Assembly: GCA_004010835.2 (NCBI GenBank)
Contig: CP030868.2
Location: 62,001-126,000 of the forward strand
Source: Oenococcus sp. UCMA 16435
GTDB lineage: Bacteria > Bacillota > Bacilli > Lactobacillales > Lactobacillaceae
Length of the DNA: 64,000 bases
Reading direction: 5' to 3'
The notes beneath the pieces are model-generated. The model was not told the DNA's origin. It searched no databases and was given only the letters and a program-made list of their open reading frames with translations. The stretch's first letter is position 1. Every line of letters begins with the position of its first letter. The translations under genes and the position numbers were made by a program. This document shows positions 41,913 through 54,300 of this stretch, piece by piece.

Positions 41913-45017
<3,105 letters not shown>

Positions 45018-45037
45018 CTAAATGTGTATATTAAAAT

Positions 45038-45051
45038 CGTAAGCGCTCACA
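45038..45051. promoter_or_regulatory. cre/LacI-type operator in the lacZ promoter
   Basis: CGTAAGCGCTCACA matches the cre consensus TGWAANCGNTNWCA at 13 of 14 positions. On the lacZ strand it reads TGTGAGCGCTTACG, close to an ideal lac-type operator. It lies 36 bases before the lacZ start codon, overlapping the expected promoter. Confidence 0.65.
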
Positions 45052-45114
45052 CAATAAAAATCAAATCCTTTATTGCAAAAAAGAATGAAGATAATTACGT
45101 AATTTCGGCCAAAG

Positions 45115-45143
45115 TTGAAAGCGGTTACATGAAATCATAAAAA
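45115..45143 (+). promoter_or_regulatory. SDR promoter overlapped by a perfect cre site
   Basis: TTGAAA (45115-45120), 17 bases, TAAAAA (45138-45143). TGAAAGCGGTTACA (45116-45129) matches all 14 positions of the cre consensus and covers the -35 box. CcpA or a LacI-family regulator bound here would repress the SDR gene and could also affect lacZ. Confidence 0.7.
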
Positions 45144-45193
45144 GTGATAGAGTGACCTTAGATTCAAAGTATTTTTTAAAAAGGAGCTTAATA

Positions 45194-45958
45194 ATGAGTG
45201 AGAAATTAAAAAATAAAATTGCAATTATTACCGGTGCTGCTTCTGGTATGGGGAAGGCAATCGCTGAATTGTTTGCTCGTGAAGGAGCAAAAATAATTGC
45301 CGGTGATCTAAATGAAGATGGTGTTAAGTTAGTTGTAGAAAAAATTAATCAAGCAGGTGGGAAAGCCGTCGCAGTCAAAGCCAATGTCGCAAATCAGGCC
45401 GATATTGATAATTTATTCGACAGTGCTCAAAACAGTTTTCACGGTTTGGATATTCTAGTAAATAATGCTGGAATTATGGACAGTATGGAACCGGTTGCCA
45501 ATGTTACAGATTCGGAATGGGAACGTGTTTTTGCAGTAAATACGGTTAGCGTTGTGCGTGCAAGTCGAGCCGCAGTTAAGCTTTTTTTACCAAAAAAATA
45601 CGGAGTTATTTTGAACATCGCTTCAGTTGGTGGTACTCATGGAGCTCGAGCTGGCGCAGCTTATACGGCATCGAAACACGCCGTAGTCGGATTAACTAAA
45701 AATACAGCTTATATGTACGAAAAGGAAGGTATTCGTTGTAACGCGATTGCACCTGGAGGAATTAATACCAATATTTCTTCAAGTATGACAAATATTGATA
45801 AATTCGGTATGCAACGTCAACAAACTGGGATGGCAACAATGTCCGAGCCCGGATCAGCCGAAGATATCGCCAATGCAGCTTTGTTTTTGGTTTCCGACGA
45901 GGCAGCTTATGTGAACGGAGCCATTTTGCCTGTCAATGGTGCTTGGACTGCTTACTAA
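45194..45958 (+). CDS. Short-chain dehydrogenase/reductase
   Basis: A 254-residue classical SDR. The cofactor motif is TGAASGMGKAIAE, with DLNED after strand 2 (Asp suggests NAD preference), NNAG, the catalytic Ser in ILNIASVGG and YTASKHA (Tyr-x3-Lys). ATG 45194 is chosen for AAAAAGGAG just upstream. Substrate is unknown; relatives include glucose, acetoin/diacetyl and alcohol dehydrogenases. It is divergent from lacZ, with cre-like operators between them, so it is probably tied to sugar supply. Confidence 0.88.
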   Translation: MSEKLKNKIAIITGAASGMGKAIAELFAREGAKIIAGDLNEDGVKLVVEKINQAGGKAVAVKANVANQADIDNLFDSAQNSFHGLDILVNNAGIMDSMEPVANVTDSEWERVFAVNTVSVVRASRAAVKLFLPKKYGVILNIASVGGTHGARAGAAYTASKHAVVGLTKNTAYMYEKEGIRCNAIAPGGINTNISSSMTNIDKFGMQRQQTGMATMSEPGSAEDIANAALFLVSDEAAYVNGAILPVNGAWTAY

Positions 45959-46126
45959 TTAATTAAAAACCACCAACCCCTTTAATAATAAAATCATCAA
46001 AAACGAACTATCTAAAAGAATTAAAATTAAAGATATTTTTTTGTAATTGTATTAATTATTGGGTATGTTTTTATATCTTGTGATAATATTTACTTTACAT
46101 TTTAGTTGCAAAGGAGATATAAGAAT

Positions 46127-46786
46127 ATGAATTCATCATCAGTAGTAAAAGCAGTTGAAGCGTTGAAAAAAGGAAAATTAATTATCGTTGTTGATAATAG
46201 TGACCGTGAAAACGAAGGAGATCTATTGGGACTAGGGGCTAAAATGACTCCCGAAAATATGAATTTCATGGTGACCAAGGCCAGAGGGCTGGTATGCGCG
46301 CCAATAACTTCAGCACTTGCTAAGCGTTTAGGACTGAATCCGATGGTTGAAAAAAATACAGAGACCAATAAAACAGCTTTTACTATTTCACTTGATGGTA
46401 CACACGAAGTAGGCGGAATTACAACTGGTGTTTCCGCTTATGACCGTGCAGCCACAATTAAGAAATTAAGCGATCCGGATTGTAAAGCCGAAGATTTTGT
46501 CCATCCTGGACATATGTTTCCTTTGATAGCTAAAGATGGTGGCGTTTTGGAACGCAATGGGCATACCGAAGCAGCAGTCGATTTGGCTAAATTGTCCGGA
46601 GTCACGGCAGTTGGAACAATTGTCGAAGTTTTACGACCTGACGGACATATGGCACGAAGAGATTATTTATCGCAAATGTCGGTTGAATATCAACTACCAT
46701 TGCTAACAATCGATGAACTATCAGAATTCATTCGTGAAAATGGTTTAGATCCAATTGATTTGAAATCTTTAAATAAACAAGTCTAG
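46127..46786 (+). CDS. ribB: 3,4-dihydroxy-2-butanone 4-phosphate synthase, stand-alone
   Basis: Turns ribulose 5-phosphate into the four-carbon unit of riboflavin. The 219-residue product has DNSDRENEGDL (metal site), THEVGGITTGVSAYDRAATI, HPGHMFPLIAKDGGVLERNGHTEAAVDLAKL and the late HMARRDYL. ATG 46127 follows AAAGGAG. No GTP cyclohydrolase II domain is fused, no other rib gene is near and no FMN riboswitch was seen upstream, so the role of a lone RibB is unclear. A strong hairpin follows about 90 bases downstream. Confidence 0.92.
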   Translation: MNSSSVVKAVEALKKGKLIIVVDNSDRENEGDLLGLGAKMTPENMNFMVTKARGLVCAPITSALAKRLGLNPMVEKNTETNKTAFTISLDGTHEVGGITTGVSAYDRAATIKKLSDPDCKAEDFVHPGHMFPLIAKDGGVLERNGHTEAAVDLAKLSGVTAVGTIVEVLRPDGHMARRDYLSQMSVEYQLPLLTIDELSEFIRENGLDPIDLKSLNKQV

Positions 46787-46877
46787 TTCTTTTACTCTAG
46801 CTATCATACTGCGCCACTTATTGAATTGTATAAGAAGCTTAAAAAAGGAATATTAATAGAAACACCCAGTAATATAT

Positions 46878-46930
46878 ATCCCAATAGTGTTTAAACTCTA
46901 TTTTTAGACACTATTGGGATTTTGTTTTAT
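46878..46930. repeat. Hairpin repeat, copy 1 (terminator-like)
   Basis: An 18-bp stem with one G-U pair (46878-46895 with 46903-46920, ATCCCAATAGTGT/ACACTATTGGGAT at the base) and a 7-base loop, followed by TTTTGTTTTAT. The 20 bases 46878-46897 recur exactly in reverse orientation at 51313-51332. It can end ribB transcripts and marks the left edge of the secreted-protein cassette. Confidence 0.85.
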
Positions 46931-47017
46931 CAAATGATAAATTGGTGCTTTTTGTGCAAAAATACACAATTATTTATGTTAATGTTAAACGTATAACAAA
47001 TAACTAAGGGAGATATT

Positions 47018-47446
47018 ATGAATAAGAAAGCAATTGTATTGTCTGTAATGATAACTGCATTAACCGCCGCTAGTGTTTATGGCAATTTTGGAGAAGGACA
47101 TCAAGCTAGTGCTACAACTTCTAGAATACATTTTCAATTTAGATGGAATGACCCTACTGACTGGAGTAATAATCAACAAAAATGGACTAAGTCTGCATAT
47201 AATTTGCAATCCACTACTGTATCAGTTCCCTCGTATTATGCTAACGCTTGGGGACATTCATATAAAGCAGGGAAAACAGGTAATGTTGATGTATCTGAAG
47301 GACATACATATACCGTATATAGTAACCATACGTATGGAATATATAATAAATTAGTTGAGTGGTATGGCAAAGGTAACAATGCCTTTATTCATGCCTGGTC
47401 TTATAACAATGGTGATGCTTGGGGAAACTGGTCAGCAGATCGCTAA
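47018..47446 (+). CDS. Small secreted Trp-rich protein of unknown family
   Basis: A 142-residue protein. A Sec-type signal peptide is clear: MNKK, hydrophobic core IVLSVMITALTAASVYG, and a possible cut after HQASA. The mature part of about 108 residues has eight Trp, many Tyr, Asn and His, and no Cys. It ends AWSYNNGDAWGNWSADR. It starts with GGGAG 7 bases upstream and a TATAAC -10-like box at 46992. Five genes for a membrane/ABC system follow at once. I do not recognise the family. The layout recalls lactococcin 972-type bacteriocins, which are Sec-secreted and have an adjacent ABC system, but the sequence does not align by eye. Confidence 0.7.
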   Translation: MNKKAIVLSVMITALTAASVYGNFGEGHQASATTSRIHFQFRWNDPTDWSNNQQKWTKSAYNLQSTTVSVPSYYANAWGHSYKAGKTGNVDVSEGHTYTVYSNHTYGIYNKLVEWYGKGNNAFIHAWSYNNGDAWGNWSADR

Positions 47447-47481
47447 ATTCAAAAAAATAAAACAGTTAGGATTTTAATAAT

Positions 47482-48306
47482 ATGACCAGTGAGATTAATA
47501 AAAACATGTCGTTTTACTTATTGCGCTTAAAAAATTATCGCTACTTTATAGGGCTTGCCATAGGCATTTCTATCGTAATATTACATGCTGTATTAACTTT
47601 GCAACCATTAATGCATCTTATTGATGGAGACCAATTTTGGTTCACGCCATATACTGAATGGATATCTTTTAATGTGAATGGCTGGACTATTTTGTTTTAT
47701 CTCAGCATCCCATTACTAAGTAGCCTATCTGCAGCTCAATTAATGATCGATGATCTTCAAAGCGGTTTTTTATGGCAAATAATTAACCGCATGAATTATA
47801 TAAAATATATTGGAACAATTCAGATTATTTCGTTTTTAAGCGGAGCAATCACAATTTTAATTCCGTTAGCGCTGGATTACTTTATATTTTGGTGTTTCAC
47901 ACCGAATCTAAAAGCAAATTTTGTCTTAAATGCTAATCATCCGTTGCTTGGCCAGACTACTTTCTTTGCGAATTACTACTATACTCAACCTTTTAAACTT
48001 GTTATTTTTTATCTACTGTTTTCCGCGGTATTGGGTGGTTTATATGCCTTATTTTCCAGTACATTAGCCAGCTGTATTAATAATCGATTTGTATCATTAG
48101 CAACTGGTTTTGTGTTAACGATGATATTGAATGTTTTATCTGCTGCATTTCCACATATATCTTTGCCTTCACCGGTTCTAATTGCTATTGGGAGTAGTCC
48201 GGTATATTTGCCAGGAATAGTGCCAACAATATTTGTGATTGCCACAGTCTTGCTGCTTCTAATCGTTGTTCACACAGTAGGGGTTAATAAGCGTATTCAT
48301 GTATAA
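47482..48306 (+). CDS. Polytopic membrane protein of the ABC cassette (1)
   Basis: A 274-residue protein with about six hydrophobic helices. It starts MTSEINKNMSFYLLRLKNYRYFIGL and has helices such as LVIFYLLFSAVLGGLYALFSSTLA and VPTIFVIATVLLLLIVVHTVG. The form, with a cytoplasmic N-terminus, a paired first helix and a large extracytoplasmic loop, resembles ABC-2 type permease subunits. It begins 35 bases after the secreted protein gene and overlaps the next gene by 8 bases. No enzymatic motif is visible. Confidence 0.7.
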   Translation: MTSEINKNMSFYLLRLKNYRYFIGLAIGISIVILHAVLTLQPLMHLIDGDQFWFTPYTEWISFNVNGWTILFYLSIPLLSSLSAAQLMIDDLQSGFLWQIINRMNYIKYIGTIQIISFLSGAITILIPLALDYFIFWCFTPNLKANFVLNANHPLLGQTTFFANYYYTQPFKLVIFYLLFSAVLGGLYALFSSTLASCINNRFVSLATGFVLTMILNVLSAAFPHISLPSPVLIAIGSSPVYLPGIVPTIFVIATVLLLLIVVHTVGVNKRIHV

Positions 48307-49006
48307 ATATCTCAAGGAACATCAAACAAAAAAACAGCAATTAATATCTTATTGTGTATTAATTATTTGGGCTTGTATCGTTAGTACCTGGTTGTACCAA
48401 ATGGATACAAATACAACTGAAAAAGTTGGAATTCTACATAGGCTAATATTTGTTTTGCAAAGTCCGCATAATCAATTATATTTTGGTATTCCGATTTTAT
48501 CAGTTTCTTGGCTTTTAATATTCAAAACACCAACGCATCAGGAGTTGTATCTAATATCGCGACAAAAAAAATTTCCGATCTTTTTACTTTTTAACGTCCT
48601 AAAAATGTTAAAAATCTTTTGTCTTGGAACATTTCTAGGAACAATAGCATATTCATTGTTACCAATTCATTTATCTCCTATTATATGGGACGTTCAAAAT
48701 CTGTTTTTAGCTTTTTATTTGTTCATACTTCATTGTTTTGGATTAATAGTGTATTTGGGAATACTGGCATTATTAAGCGTTTTATTCAATAAAGTTTCTT
48801 CTCTAATCTTTTGGGGCGTTTTACTATATGCAGACTATTTCACGTTTAACACCTGTTCTTGGTCTTTTTTCATATCTCGAGGATTGACTTTTCCCTCGAC
48901 AGAATATGGAATGAATTTGCTCATTTATTTGTCTTTGTATAGTTGTTACATATATGTATTGTTCTTTTTATCGGATTCATTTCTTCAAAAAAGGAAAAAT
49001 ATATGA
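48299..49006 (+). CDS. Polytopic membrane protein of the ABC cassette (2)
   Basis: A 235-residue protein with about six helices, starting with a charged cytoplasmic head (MYKYLKEHQTKKQQ). LILFKTPTHQELYLISRQKKFPIFLLF-like text between helices two and three resembles the coupling loop of ABC-2 type permeases. It overlaps both neighbours (8 bases upstream, ATGA downstream). It is not a close copy of the first membrane protein. Function unknown; a permease subunit is the best guess. Confidence 0.65.
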   Translation: MYKYLKEHQTKKQQLISYCVLIIWACIVSTWLYQMDTNTTEKVGILHRLIFVLQSPHNQLYFGIPILSVSWLLIFKTPTHQELYLISRQKKFPIFLLFNVLKMLKIFCLGTFLGTIAYSLLPIHLSPIIWDVQNLFLAFYLFILHCFGLIVYLGILALLSVLFNKVSSLIFWGVLLYADYFTFNTCSWSFFISRGLTFPSTEYGMNLLIYLSLYSCYIYVLFFLSDSFLQKRKNI

Positions 49007-49656
49007 ATAAACATAATTATTTACTATATCGGAACGCTTTATTATATTGGGGAAAAATCAAATATCGTTTTTATATAATAAGTCTGATTTTCGGAATTGT
49101 GATTTTCATAAATCGCTTACGCGGAAATGAATTTAAAACGATATTTAACGGCGTCCATCAAGTTTCCGGAACATTTACTTTTCCAAGCACGTGGTTGTTT
49201 TTAGTCTTTGCGCCATTGCTAATAATTGGGGAAAGTATTAGTCAACTAGTCAAAAAAAACTACTTATCAGTTAATACAGTTTCTTTAAAGTGCTACTTGC
49301 TAACATTGATTGAGTTAATAATTGCTACTGAACTTTTCTTATGCTTGCTGGCAATTGTTTTATCTGGAAAATCATCTGCTTGTCAGTTTATGATCTCGTT
49401 TTTTATATATTCGTCCATCGTTGCTTGTACATACGCTTTATTAGAAATATTTTTGACTCCTGCAATAACACAAATATTTTTTCTCGGTATATTTGTGGCT
49501 GCTATATCAATTAATAATTTTCCAATAATATCTCATTTAATGTTTTGTCGAAGTCCTTATCTAATTGATTTGTCAGACATAGCACCACTCGGTTTACTCA
49601 TTATCGGAATTACCGGATTAATCAAGTTTTTATATCACATCGATTTTACAAGTTAG
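49003..49656 (+). CDS. Polytopic membrane protein of the ABC cassette (3)
   Basis: A 217-residue protein with about six helices. ATG 49003 is chosen because AAAAAGGA precedes it and it overlaps the upstream stop as ATGA; the longer frame adds only a shadow of the preceding gene. It starts MNKHNYLLYRNALLYWGKIKYRFY, a head similar in style to the first membrane protein (short, then Tyr/Lys-rich). The ATPase gene follows 11 bases on. Function unknown. Confidence 0.65.
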   Translation: MNKHNYLLYRNALLYWGKIKYRFYIISLIFGIVIFINRLRGNEFKTIFNGVHQVSGTFTFPSTWLFLVFAPLLIIGESISQLVKKNYLSVNTVSLKCYLLTLIELIIATELFLCLLAIVLSGKSSACQFMISFFIYSSIVACTYALLEIFLTPAITQIFFLGIFVAAISINNFPIISHLMFCRSPYLIDLSDIAPLGLLIIGITGLIKFLYHIDFTS

Positions 49657-49667
49657 GAAATAATAAT

Positions 49668-50318
49668 ATGACATCACCTATAATTGAATTAAAAAACGTA
49701 AGTAAAAAATTTCGAAATCGTACTGTTATTCACGGACTTAATTTAGAATTGAATGCCAATCAAATATATGGCTTTAGCGGTCCTAATGGTGCCGGAAAGA
49801 CATTGACCTTTAAACTAATTCTTGGTTTTGTGAAAGCAACCCGGGGACAAGTCATTGTTAACGGCAAAGTGCTGCGCCAAGACACTTTATTTGCTCCCGG
49901 AATTGGTTTTGCTATTCAAGAATACGGATTACTAGCAGATAAAAGTGGAAGTGAAAATTTAAAACTGCTATCGATATTATCGAAAATACAAACCAGTGTT
50001 GTCCCAGGTATACTGTCTTATGTTGGCCTGGATCCAATTGATGACCGTCAGGTAAGAGAATATTCGTTAGGCATGAAGCAACGTCTCTTAATAGCTGCTG
50101 CATTGTTAAGAGATGATAATATATTAATTTTCGATGAACCGACTAACGCATTGGATGAAAACGGGCAGCATTTTCTAGTGAGTTTAATTCGTGATTTAAA
50201 AAGCCAAGGAAAAACTATTTTGATTTCCAGTCATGATGCCGAATTTTTAAAACTAGTTTCGGATAAAATATTTAAGTATAGCAGTGAAGGGAACATTATC
50301 GGAGAGATAGTTCCATGA
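49668..50318 (+). CDS. ABC transporter ATPase of the cassette
   Basis: A 216-residue ATPase. Walker A GPNGAGKT, Q-loop FAIQEYGLLADKS, signature YSLGMKQRLLIAAALL, Walker B NILIFDEPTNALDENG and switch SSHD are present. The LGMKQRL signature is typical of ABC-2 type export and immunity systems (CcmA/LanF-like). It would drive the membrane proteins encoded just upstream and overlaps the next gene by 4 bases. Confidence 0.92.
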   Translation: MTSPIIELKNVSKKFRNRTVIHGLNLELNANQIYGFSGPNGAGKTLTFKLILGFVKATRGQVIVNGKVLRQDTLFAPGIGFAIQEYGLLADKSGSENLKLLSILSKIQTSVVPGILSYVGLDPIDDRQVREYSLGMKQRLLIAAALLRDDNILIFDEPTNALDENGQHFLVSLIRDLKSQGKTILISSHDAEFLKLVSDKIFKYSSEGNIIGEIVP

Positions 50319-50791
50319 AAAGAAAATCATTTTTAAAAATTATTATTACCTTGGTTTTGATAGGCGCTATTTGCTTGATGATTAGAAATAAGCTAGCTGT
50401 TAATCAAAAATATAAAGATTTTCGAATCACTGAAAAAAATGTCCAATCAGCATCACAAAAAATTGAGCTAAACGACAATTTAACTGTAACTAAAGTGGTT
50501 CAAACGCACAAAGAGACAAAATATTATGCAACCGTAAATATATATGCTAAAAAAGCAAGCGAGTTATCCATTAATAATTGGTATTTGTATGAAAACAAAA
50601 ATATACAACCTAATCAATTTGATGTAGACTATCTCCGAATTAATGGCCAAGCGACAAAACAAATGAAAGCAGGGAATAATACAATTAAAATATTTACCTA
50701 TCTCGATTCCAAGGCCCTCCAGCAATATCACCTGACTATCGTTGCTCACCCTCAAAAAAGTAAATACTTGATATACAATTTTCTGCGATAA
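50315..50791 (+). CDS. Membrane-anchored extracytoplasmic protein of the cassette
   Basis: A 158-residue protein. The basic start MKRKSFLK precedes one hydrophobic helix (IIITLVLIGAICLMI) with no cleavage site that stands out, so it is probably a signal anchor. The rest is hydrophilic and beta-rich (ELNDNLTVTKVVQTHKETKYYATVNIYAKK). As last gene of the operon it may be an accessory or immunity protein, as seen in many bacteriocin loci. No family recognised. Confidence 0.6.
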   Translation: MKRKSFLKIIITLVLIGAICLMIRNKLAVNQKYKDFRITEKNVQSASQKIELNDNLTVTKVVQTHKETKYYATVNIYAKKASELSINNWYLYENKNIQPNQFDVDYLRINGQATKQMKAGNNTIKIFTYLDSKALQQYHLTIVAHPQKSKYLIYNFLR

Positions 50792-50990
50792 ATAATCTGC
50801 AATTTTTAAGCATGCAATAAAAATTAATTTGCATCAGCACTCTCATGCTTAGCAATCACAAATTATTTTTAAAATGCATTGATGGAAGTCACAATCAAAG
50901 TAATTCCTTTGATTTATCATTAAAAGACCTTGGTAGCAAGAAAATACGTTAAATTACTTATCAAATACCCGTCAAGACCTTTAATCATGA
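50792..50990. other. AT-rich non-coding stretch after the cassette
   Basis: No convincing frame or structure seen between the last cassette gene and the terminator-like region at 50991. The stretch from 51040 to 51290 is likewise empty and very AT-rich. Confidence 0.4.
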
Positions 50991-51038
50991 AATAGAATCT
51001 ACTTTTCGTTTTTTTAGAACTTAGGTTCTATTTTTATT
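50991..51038 (+). terminator. Terminator with an alternative pairing partner
   Basis: TAGAAC-TTAG-GTTCTA (51015-51020 with 51025-51030) followed by TTTTTATTTAT forms a small terminator. AATAGAATCT (50991-51000) can instead pair with AGGTTCTATT (51023-51032), which would break that hairpin. This could be chance, but it resembles a terminator/antiterminator pair. Confidence 0.5.
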
Positions 51039-51290
51039 TATCTATGAAATCTTCAAAAATTCGCAAGAACAGAACACCAAAAAATAATATTTCTGTTAAT
51101 TTACCGTTCAAAGTAAAATTTAATTGAATTTAAAATGTAACATCACAGACAAATAATTTTTTTAATTTTAGTTAACATAATATATATTATTCAAAGTTAT
51201 TAAAATTTAACTAATTATAAAATTAGGAAGCTTCTAATTTTATTTATAACCTTTTTTAAAATTGATTCATAAAGTTTTTAGATAAAACAA

Positions 51291-51340
51291 AAAATCCCAA
51301 TAGTATATAAAAAGTTTAAACACTATTGGGATTTTATTTT
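51291..51340. repeat. Hairpin repeat, copy 2 (terminator for dextransucrase gene)
   Basis: A 14-bp perfect stem (51291-51304 with 51322-51335, AAAATCCCAATAGT/ACTATTGGGATTTT) with T runs on both strands. It lies 22 bases beyond the dextransucrase stop on the minus strand and is a good terminator for it. The sequence 51313-51332 is the exact reverse complement of 46878-46897, so the two copies bracket the secreted-protein cassette in inverted orientation. Confidence 0.85.
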
Positions 51341-51361
51341 ATTAATTATTAAATGTTCTTA

Positions 51362-54300
51362 TTAATACTGTTTTTTTAAAGCTCTCACATCAATCCAGTA
51401 TGTTTTTGAACCATCCTGAACTTCGGCATACTTGTAACTAATACCGTTTGAGCGTTGTGTTACGGCAGTTTGCAAAACAGTGACCGTATGTCCATTATAT
51501 TTATTAGCTTGGTCATCCGAATAGAAAGTATTTTTGCTTGTATATGCCGGACCATTCAGATAAATTCCATCTTTTCTGTTTGTTTCGTTAATCGTAGCCG
51601 TATAGCCATTCCAATCGTGAGAAGAAATAGTCGAATAAACTAACGAACGAACATCGAGCCAATAAGTTATATCCCCGTCCTGGACTTGAGCGTAACTGTA
51701 AGTATTGCCGTTTGGGCGTTGGGTTTTGGTGATTTGTAAAATTTGGACAATGTGATTATTATATTTGGAATTTTTATAATCTGCATTCCAAGTCATAATA
51801 CTAGTCATGGCAGGACCATTTAGGTAAATCCCATCATCACGAGTTGTTCCGTCTATAATCGCATATTGGTTGCCATTTGTGGTCATCGACTGAGTACTTA
51901 TAATTTGGTCCAAACGATGAATTGCTCTTTCGTCTATCCAATAATTATGGCTACCATCATGGACGTAAACGTAAGTATAAGTTTTTCCATTAGCTCTTTT
52001 AGTAACAGCAATTTTATCGACTGTTACTATATCGCTCTGATAATTCGCTGCTTGTCCATCGGCTTTTAATGTATCTGTCGAAGTCAAAGCTGGACCATTT
52101 AAATAAATTCCGTCAGTTCGACTTGTTTGATCAACGAAAGCCTGATATGAAGACACATTTTGATAATTGAAGTTTGCATATTTTTCGATATCCAAACTTC
52201 TAACATCGATCCAATAAATTGCAGTTCCGTCTTGGACCTTAGCATATTGATACTTGTTTCCATTTGATCTTTCCGTTGTATCAATTTCTAATACTTGGAC
52301 CACATTTCCTTTATACAAAGCGCTTGACGACATATTATCAGCTTTAATTGTCTGGCTGTTGGTCAAGGCCGGACCATTTAGATATATACCATCATTTCTT
52401 GTATTGCCGTCAATAATTGCGTATTGATTGCTAGCGTTCTCGACATTAATAACTTGTGCAAGAGGATCTATAGCTCTTTTGTCCACCCAAAATGTTTTAG
52501 AACCATCCTGAACTTTTGTATAAGTATATTCGGTTGACCCCCTTTTTGTGGTTATCGTTTCCAAAACTGTGACTATGTCTCCGTTAAAATTATCGACTTT
52601 TCCGTCCGACAACAAAGTAAGTGGGTTCGTTAAAGCTGGCCCGTTATTATAAATACCGTCTTTTCTGTTATTTTGTTTGATAATTGCTTGATAAGAATTT
52701 AAATCGCGATTGTACATGGTGGCATACTGTTGTGAACTTGATCCATCTTTTGTGTTTAATGCCCTTACGTCAATCCAAAAATTTTCTTTAGTTTTTTGGT
52801 CATAGACCTTTACATAGGTATAAATTAATCCGTTCGCTCTTTGAGTGATTGATGTCTGTAAAACAGTAACTTTGTCGCCATTGAATTTCTGGCCTTGTTC
52901 ATCACTGCTCATTGTTTTATCAGATGACAATGCAGGACCGTTTAGGTAAATCCCGTCATTTCTATCTCTTTGAACAATATATGCGTCGTACAAATTAGAG
53001 TTCGAGTCAATGATTTGAGCATAAGCATTATTGAATTTGATTGTCGAATCGAAAGTTACATAATTAACATTATCTCGTCCACTGATTTTGTGCCCATTTC
53101 CGGTTCCGTCGTCAAATGCATACCATTGGCCGGTTGCTTGATCGTATGCATCCGCATTTTTTAACTGAACACCATTTTCAGAAAAGTATTGTAAATTCTG
53201 GCCCATTGTATTCAGGCCTCTTGACATTTTTCCATCAGTCCCGAGATGGTAGACATTGCCGGCTCCATCGAAGACATATTTGTCTTTAACCATCTGACCA
53301 ACTTCATCGAAATAATAAGTATAACCATCGACATCCTGAGCAAAACCGTTTCTCATTTCAACACTATTCGGAAGAATTAAATAAGTAGCGTCCTGCGTAC
53401 TGCCATTTATCGGAATTGTCGTTAAAGCACTCATCCCATCTTGAGAACCTTGTTTCATATAACCGTTTTCGTCAAAATAATACCAATTACCATTTCCGTC
53501 TTCAATAAAAGTATTTTTAGCTTGATAGCCACTTAATGAATAATACTTTATGCCTTTTTCATCAGAAACGAAACCCGTTTGCGAAGTTTTGTTCATTAAT
53601 TGCAAAGGCAAAAAAACATCACTGGTTTGCCCAATTTTAAAATATTTATTGCTTCCCCAATCCTTTAAAACAAAGTAAGCACCACGCCCAAGGATGTTTG
53701 TACCGTTAAAATATTTCGCTTCCCAAGACGTAATTTTGGTACTTGGGTCAATTGTCGTTCCGGTTGATTCCTGTTTGCGCGTAAACAGATTTGGATACTT
53801 GCTTTCTAATTCTGACAGGAAAGCACCACCATATTTAGCTTGGTAATCCCCTCCTCCGATTGTATTTGCAACATATAATAAATCTTTGAATTGCGAGCCA
53901 CTCATTGGATCTCCGTTTTGATCCACACGAGTAGCAGTTACCGCTTCTTGTCCTGGCAAGTTATAAATTTGATCTGGTACCCAATCGGCTATGACCTGAA
54001 TCCCTTGGGCATGTAACGATTTAATAGCACTTGTTAAATCATTGGTTGTACCATATTTCGTTGGAGTATTAAAACCTAAATCATATCGATCGGTAAATGC
54101 ATATCCATTATTAACTGTTGAATCCAAAAAAGTTCCATCTTCGCTAGAACGATATTGGGGAGCTATTTCAAAACTAGTGATTCCCCAAGACTTAAATAAA
54201 TCAGCATTTTTAGCGATCACTGCATTAGTGTATTCATCCTTATTTGTGGGCATTGACTGAAAATTAGAAAATCCCTCATAAATAACGTTTGAATCCAGCG

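What the first reader, a model, noticed from the sequence alone, without database searches (positions are those of the whole stretch)
47018..50791. Unrecognised operon: secreted Trp-rich protein, three membrane proteins, ABC ATPase and anchored protein
Seen: a signal-peptide protein with a mature part of about 108 residues, eight Trp and no Cys, followed by three different six-helix proteins, an ABC-2-style ATPase (LGMKQRL signature) and a single-helix extracytoplasmic protein. Gaps are short and four junctions overlap or nearly so. Known: lactococcin 972-like and other bacteriocin loci pair a secreted polypeptide with an ABC system for immunity or export. Inference: this may be a new bacteriocin-like or cell-surface signalling system. 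No maturation enzyme, peptidase or regulator is present, so the polypeptide probably leaves by Sec and the ABC unit protects the producer or releases it.
Basis: partly seen in the sequence, partly recalled or inferred. Interest (0 to 1): 0.82.

Follow-up and report, generated by a model that had tools for sequence, protein, structure and literature searches.

The report
Secreted protein with immunity-type ABC transporter
This stretch holds a six-gene cassette, also found in many related bacteria, that makes a small secreted protein together with a transporter resembling those that protect antibiotic-making bacteria from their own product, so it is probably an undescribed antibacterial protein with its self-protection system, though no activity has been shown.

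Summary
Observation confirmed: six same-strand genes (S, M1, M2, M3, A, X) at 47018-50791. S belongs to a diverse family reaching Pfam DUF2712 and travels with the transporter: of 56 S genes in fetched loci, 50 lie within 500 bp of M1 and 55 within 4 kb of an ABC ATPase. In Bacillales relatives the partners are DUF2705, WxPxxD, DUF2705 and ABC. No paper on these families was found. S is not lactococcin 972. Most family ATPases carry the E-loop of lantibiotic-immunity transporters, but the window's subclade has lost it. M1 weakly resembles LanG permeases. S is missing or broken in relatives whose transporter genes stay intact at 95-99.5% DNA identity; loss is certain only where S remnants or a frameshift remain. 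Some relatives have sensory or quorum-type regulators nearby. Best reading: a Sec-secreted beta-sandwich antibacterial protein with a LanFEG-like immunity transporter and an Ig-like surface helper (confidence 0.6). Activity is unshown; a stress or resistance module remains a live rival.

The parts
46878..46920 (+). Terminator-like hairpin between the upstream gene (46106-46786) and S, suggesting that the cassette starts its own transcript
   Evidence: 1 found; shuffles mean 2.1, so no more than chance by that count; an 18-pair stem is seen directly
47018..47446 (+). S: secreted 142-aa protein, N-terminal signal peptide about residues 1-33 (cut site assumed), mature beta-sandwich of about 109 aa, 8 Trp, no Cys; distant DUF2712 relative
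47482..48306 (+). M1: membrane protein, DUF2705/LanG-like ABC-2 half permease (inferred from relatives)
   Evidence: no direct family hit for the window protein
48299..49006 (+). M2: membrane protein at the position of the WxPxxD family (NF035952) in Bacillales relatives
   Evidence: no direct family hit for the window protein
49003..49656 (+). M3: membrane protein at the position of DUF2705 in Bacillales relatives
   Evidence: no direct family hit for the window protein
49668..50318 (+). A: ABC ATPase; best NCBIfam match is the lantibiotic-protection ATPase TIGR03740 (below its cut-off); Q at the Q-loop position, followed by E
50315..50791 (+). X: single N-terminal helix plus extracytoplasmic Ig-like beta-sandwich (predicted; MPT63 / YjhA type)

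Best explanation
The cassette encodes a Sec-secreted, unmodified antibacterial protein (S) and its self-immunity machine. S folds into a cysteine-free beta-sandwich outside the cell and acts on neighbouring Gram-positive cells, probably at a conserved surface target such as a cell-wall precursor. M1, M2 and M3 (three different ABC-2-type half permeases) with the ATPase A form a LanFEG-like transporter that removes S from the producer's membrane or target and expels it outward; X, an Ig-like domain tethered by one helix, catches S or presents it to the transporter, in the role of LanI/LanH. Shown here: the conserved linkage, the folds of S and X by prediction, the E-loop in most of the wider family's ATPases, the transporter kept where S is missing or broken. 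Inferred: killing activity, the target, that M1-M3 are permeases, the direction of transport and the role of X.
For: Linkage: 15 of 15 family genomes with S (of 301 searched) also have M1, which is found in 45 of 301; 50 of 56 S genes within 500 bp of M1, 55 of 56 within 4 kb of an ABC ATPase. E-loop: Glu at the Q-loop position in 47 of 59 ATPases near S and 19 of 33 near M1 loci first scored S-less, against 5 of 35 other ABC proteins in the same loci (crude alignment; misfiled rows are told in the full report); 19 of 20 ATPases next to MutG-type permeases show it by regular expression (12 of those 20 permeases pass the curated cut-off). The window's A scores best against TIGR03740, lantibiotic protection, though below cut-off. 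M1 profile versus LanG: hhalign probability 77%, E 2e-5 for one comparison. S missing or broken, transporter intact: plasmids L018/L021 (99.5% over 3709 bp starting 58 bp after S), genomes L054/L069 (94.9%), L056 versus L070 and L071 (97-98%, about 365 bp gone from S), plasmids L017/L022 (99.1%, S frameshifted). Regulators next to S in some relatives, picked by eye: GHKL kinase plus LytTR regulator (L151, L160), ComQ/ComP-type genes between two cassettes (L104), ECF sigma factor (L060). One Lactococcus cassette lies beside a Blp bacteriocin and its exporter. Five of the six plasmids read are 8.5-14.3 kb. Seven genomes hold two or more S matches.
Against: No activity data. The window's A and the ten other ATPases of its close group lack Glu at the E-loop position; nine of the eleven have Glu one residue later. 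Mature S is the most conserved part of the cassette in the close group (54.6% mean identity versus 51.9% A, 33.1% M1, 25.7% M3, 21.8% X, 18.1% M2) and is under purifying selection in the one pair tested (dN/dS about 0.10), unlike many toxins. L158 has intact S with a split M1 and no ATPase, an integrase-like gene following M3, though that genome has two other S genes. Between the two S-less relatives L070 and L071, M2 and X look relaxed (dN/dS 0.85 and 1.2, few changes) although M1, M3 and A stay constrained (0.10, 0.31, 0.12). For L018/L021 and L054/L069 the change could equally be a gain of S. ECF sigma factors suggest envelope stress as much as competition. Fold matches of S are to a common jelly-roll arrangement only.
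Confidence: 0.6

Rival explanations
1. Envelope-stress or antibiotic-resistance module: the ABC complex expels foreign cell-wall-active peptides, and S is a secreted helper that shields the target, soaks up the drug or reports damage.
For: LanFEG-like transporters also serve as pure resistance systems (CprABC, LctFEG, NsrFE1E2G-X; passages of PMC5786555); ECF sigma factor beside S in L060, and by eye in L061 and L063; up to 31 of the fetched M1 loci have no intact S; S strongly conserved.
Against: The transporter persists where S is missing or broken; S lies divergently in 6 loci; two or more different S genes per genome, quorum-type regulators and a Blp neighbour fit competition better.
Confidence: 0.22
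2. Cell-surface signalling: S is a protein ligand sensed through X and the transporter.
For: Sensory regulators beside some cassettes; S conserved, X and M2 fast-changing.
Against: The window shows no regulator among the ORFs of 60 aa or more beside the operon (by eye); regulators were not surveyed in all loci; the transporter is kept without S.
Confidence: 0.08
3. S is a surface structural or binding protein (fibre subunit or carbohydrate binder) whose display needs the transporter.
Confidence: 0.06
4. Lactococcin 972-like bacteriocin system.
For: Same logic: Sec-secreted beta-sandwich with presumed immunity and transport partners (passages of PMC11796350).
Against: No PF09683 match in the genome; profile comparison with 21 family sequences gives probability 0.15%; six genes rather than three.
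Confidence: 0.03

Closest known systems
DUF2712 (PF10916) with DUF2705 (PF10920) and WxPxxD_TM (NF035952) gene sets of Bacillales
   Same: Same order: secreted protein, three membrane proteins, ABC ATPase, anchored protein
   Different: The window proteins do not reach these models; no published function was found for them
LanFEG plus LanI/LanH lantibiotic self-immunity
   Same: ATPase of the E-loop type in most of the wider family, M1 weakly similar to LanG, extracytoplasmic helper
   Different: Three membrane proteins not two; the protected product would be a 109-aa unmodified protein, not a lanthipeptide; the window ATPase lacks Glu at the E-loop position
Lactococcin 972 / streptococcin B
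   Same: Sec-secreted beta-sandwich with membrane and ABC partners; some strains lack the functional toxin and keep the partner genes (passages)
   Different: No sequence or profile relation; different partner genes
NsrFE1E2G-X / CprABC resistance transporters
   Same: ABC with two or three membrane subunits, in one case plus an extra protein (table in PMC5786555, passages)
   Different: E1 and E2 there have 82 and 171 aa; I did not look for S-like genes beside them

Membership tests
DUF2712 (PF10916) | Window S matches the Pfam model | tested here: not met
   No DUF2712 hit for the window S
DUF2712 (PF10916) | Chain of relatives linking S to DUF2712 with the same operon | tested here: met
   6 of 42 aligned relatives hit DUF2712 at E up to 0.01, best 1.7e-38; the DUF2712 gene in L104 heads the same operon
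LanFEG immunity transporter | E-loop (Glu in place of Gln) in the ATPase | tested here: not met
   Window A has Q, then E; the wider family mostly has it, 47 of 59 ATPases near S
LanFEG immunity transporter | ATPase over the LanF model cut-off | tested here: not met
   Best NCBIfam model TIGR03740, 161.6 bits versus cut-off 309.75
LanFEG immunity transporter | Permeases homologous to LanE/LanG | tested here: inconclusive
   hhalign versus 15 MutG-type sequences: M1 77%, M3 46%, M2 14% probability
LanFEG immunity transporter | Lanthipeptide precursor and modification enzymes nearby | tested here: inconclusive
   None recognised by eye among ORFs of 60 aa or more at 44000-54000; neighbours were not run through a family search and shorter precursors not sought
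Bacteriocin (functional class) | Secreted product inhibits other bacteria | not testable with these tools
   Needs an activity assay
Bacteriocin (functional class) | Cognate immunity genes, retained in non-producers | tested here: inconclusive
   Transporter intact where S is missing or broken; whether it gives immunity is untested
Lactococcin 972 (PF09683) | Sequence match to the family profile | tested here: not met
   (own genome none, family found in 37 of 246 genomes of the order)
MPT63/YjhA-like secreted Ig-fold proteins (X) | Ig-like beta-sandwich fold | tested here: met
MPT63/YjhA-like secreted Ig-fold proteins (X) | Sequence match to a Pfam family of this fold | tested here: not met
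   Only DUF2500 at E 0.019 and EMC3_TMCO1 at 0.074, both below cut-off

The most novel reading that the evidence does not exclude
DUF2712-type proteins are a large, unrecognised class of Sec-secreted, unmodified beta-sandwich antibacterial proteins of Firmicutes, each with a dedicated three-permease ABC immunity machine, mostly of the E-loop kind; lantibiotic-type immunity transporters would then serve more than modified peptides, and the window's subclade has rewired the ATPase's coupling loop.
Probability: 0.45. Interest if true: 0.8.

Novelty: new variant of a known kind. Interest (0 to 1): 0.62.

Why it matters
Families of unknown function (DUF2712, DUF2705, WxPxxD) and an uncharacterised ABC set would get a common, testable role. 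If S is antibacterial, bacteriocin searches that look for small modified or double-glycine peptides would miss a class that is spread over lactic acid bacteria and also carried on small plasmids. Natural relatives with the transporter but without intact S give ready-made tests of immunity. The loss of the E-loop Glu in one subclade is a natural experiment on how such ABC transporters couple ATP use to release of the target.

Tried and rejected
Lactococcin 972: rejected as membership; its solved structure (recalled as PDB 2LGN) is not among the listed fold matches of S, which excludes nothing. DUF5065 for S: E 0.035, below cut-off, one member only. DUF4179: 2 of 42 S members at best 0.0016, not followed. 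A solved relative of S: none by profile of 23 S sequences up to E 5. Phages: no match for one Lactobacillaceae S; two unannotated Listeria records match the L104 S. The 540-aa protein beside one S-less locus (L095) is a solute-binding protein, not an alternative S. Rfam: nothing at 45900-51500. Promoter scan uninformative: 36 sites versus 27.6 expected. S as fibre or adhesin: only common-fold matches. A text search for Sec-dependent or new-family bacteriocins gave one unrelated paper.

Rows dropped or misfiled: alignment A1 used 23 S sequences and left out the frameshifted plasmid copy; A3 used 42 and left out plasmid rows, fragments and near-duplicates; the identity comparison used 37 cassettes (36 found by script plus one added by coordinates). 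Of the 33 loci first listed as S-less, L054 and L136 do have S (hidden by my ORF choice), and L062, L070, L071 and L095 keep remnants (L071 by eye and), so at most 31 lack an intact S. In the E-loop count at least three of the 59 and two of the 33 ATPases are not the cassette's own, one gene is counted twice in the 33 (L095 and L101 overlap), L054 and L136 sit in the S-less column, and some control rows are poorly aligned.
Full report
What is there. Searches confirm six same-strand genes at 47018-50791: S (142 aa, signal peptide), M1 (274), M2 (235), M3 (217 from its ATG), A (216, ABC ATPase) and X (158, one helix). Three junctions overlap and one has an 11-bp gap. The operon is 32.5% G+C against 37.6% for the window, and neither S nor M1 was found in the six other genomes of the genus in the sample, two of them only 65-68% complete, which points to an acquired cassette. 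A terminator-like hairpin precedes it.

Direct family searches say little. S, M1, M2, M3 and X had no family above cut-off. A is an ABC ATPase whose best NCBIfam model is TIGR03740, the lantibiotic-protection ATPase, at 161.6 bits against a cut-off of 309.75.

Relatives. In 301 genomes of the family, S matched in 15 and M1 in 45, and all 15 S genomes are among the 45; relatedness of the genomes was not corrected for. Named relatives are Lacticaseibacillus manihotivorans and jixianensis, Lactiplantibacillus xiangfangensis, Leuconostoc inhae and carnosum and Ligilactobacillus ruminis (6 loci). Plasmids of Lactiplantibacillus and Lactococcus carry it; five of the six I read are 8.5-14.3 kb, one of them (L021) without S. 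A profile of 23 S sequences found S in 27 of 395 genomes of the order. I read the neighbourhoods of 88 loci, counting the window: of 56 S genes found by script, 50 lie within 500 bp of M1 and 55 within 4 kb of an ABC ATPase. The usual order is S-M1-M2-M3-A-X. In six loci (L017, L022, L053, L144, L154, L161) S lies on the other strand, divergent from the transporter genes.

Link to DUF2712. In 42 aligned relatives one Trp is invariant and a Lys, an Asn, a Glu, a Gly and an Asp are at least 90% conserved, giving a C-terminal G-x-W-x-x-D pattern. Six of the 42 hit Pfam DUF2712 at E up to 0.01. The Pfam family itself matched 1 of 299 genomes of the class, plus the Bacillus subtilis control. That one genome (L104) has a DUF2712 gene heading the same operon, whose M1 and M3 hit DUF2705 and whose M2 hits WxPxxD_TM. 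L104 holds a second S-type cassette; between the two lie a polyprenyl synthetase and a histidine kinase, with a small ORF and a response-regulator-like ORF, an arrangement that I recognise from recall as ComQXPA. A Priestia plasmid shows the same annotated names and a second one most of them, and a Listeria monocytogenes record the same order. Text searches for DUF2712, DUF2705 and their accessions found no paper; the single WxPxxD hit, seen in the listing, concerns systemic sclerosis.

Transporter type. The E-loop, Glu in place of the Q-loop Gln, is a motif of lantibiotic immunity ATPases (Okuda et al. 2010; I saw only its reference entry in PMC7038271, the paper itself is not held; the exact position is recalled). 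As a control, 19 of 20 ATPases next to MutG-type permeases show it by regular expression; 12 of those 20 permeases pass the curated cut-off. Near S it is present in 47 of 59 ATPases, near M1 loci first scored S-less in 19 of 33, in other ABC proteins of the same loci in 5 of 35. At least three of the 59 (L058_10091, L061_720, L096_11875) and two of the 33 (L076_3755, L080_3353) are not the cassette's own ATPase, one gene is in the 33 twice, L054 and L136 are misfiled there, and some control rows align poorly. The window and the ten other cassettes of its close group lack Glu at that position (Q, P, S, G, T, V or D instead); nine of these eleven have Glu one residue later. M1 aligns with LanG-type permeases at 77% probability, M3 at 46%, M2 at 14%, so the permease link is suggestive and strongest for M1.

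S missing or broken. Plasmids L018 and L021 match at 99.5% over 3709 bp beginning 58 bp after S, but L021 lacks S. Genomes L054 and L069 match at 94.9% beginning 55 bp after S, and L069 has another gene there. In both cases the change could be a loss or a gain of S. Two genomes (L070, L071) match L056 at 97-98% across the transporter genes but lack about 365 bp of S, with its C-terminal end left, so S was lost there. S is frameshifted on plasmid L022, which matches L017 at 99.1%. Between L070 and L071, which share the deletion, M1, M3 and A show dN/dS of 0.10, 0.31 and 0.12, while M2 and X show 0.85 and 1.2 on few changes. So the transporter seems useful without S, as expected of immunity to other producers, although M2 and X may be relaxing. 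The clear opposite case is L158: S intact, M1 split, no ATPase, an integrase-like gene after M3. Some other loci have split transporter genes in genomes of 83-89% completeness (L139, L141, L148, L155), which I took for poor assemblies without testing it.

Regulation and company. I picked conspicuous neighbours by eye and scanned ten proteins from seven S loci and one S-less locus, so this is not an enrichment test: a GHKL kinase with a LytTR regulator (L151, L160), an ECF sigma factor beside a one-helix protein (L060; L061 and L063 look alike), HTH proteins (L018, L019), but also an alpha-amylase (L138). One Lactococcus cassette lies next to a Blp bacteriocin and its exporter. The window has no recognisable regulator next to the cassette (by eye).

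Reading. The pattern fits a secreted antibacterial protein with LanFEG-like self-immunity. Shown: linkage, predicted folds of S and X, E-loop in most of the wider family, transporter kept where S is missing or broken. Inferred: killing, target, permease nature and export direction, the role of X. Against: S is the most conserved component in the close group (54.6% versus 51.9% for A and 18-33% for M1, M2, M3 and X) and is under purifying selection in the one pair tested (dN/dS 0.10); stress-type regulators occur; the window's own ATPase lacks the E-loop. A resistance or stress module is the main rival. For comparison, lactococcin 972-like systems are Sec-secreted beta-sandwiches with presumed immunity partners whose function is itself unproven (passages of PMC11796350), but S is not related to them.

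Noticed in passing
L104:4087-14842: Two DUF2712-type cassettes flank a set that looks like ComQXPA quorum sensing (polyprenyl synthetase and histidine kinase by Pfam; a 65-aa ORF and a response-regulator-like ORF by eye).
   Followed up: partly
L098:173-3882: Variant cassette order: S, ATPase, one-helix protein, then three membrane proteins.
   Followed up: no
L151:8079-10325: A 58-aa secreted-peptide-like ORF precedes a GHKL kinase and LytTR regulator next to S: possible autoinducing peptide system.
   Followed up: no
L140:8446-9947: Beside S, a 127-aa and a 371-aa ORF that resemble a BlaI/BlaR1-type pair by eye; not tested with a family search.
   Followed up: no
L061:259-1852: A further ABC ATPase with an E-loop and membrane ORFs in the same locus as an S cassette, with no S of its own seen.
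   Followed up: no
window:51362-57169: 1935-aa secreted protein downstream on the other strand, by eye a glucansucrase with long C-terminal repeats of a Y-L-N-G-P-A type.
   Followed up: no
L158:8104-11997: Integrase-like gene directly after M3, ATPase and X not seen, M1 split, S intact: a cassette broken on the transporter side.
   Followed up: partly
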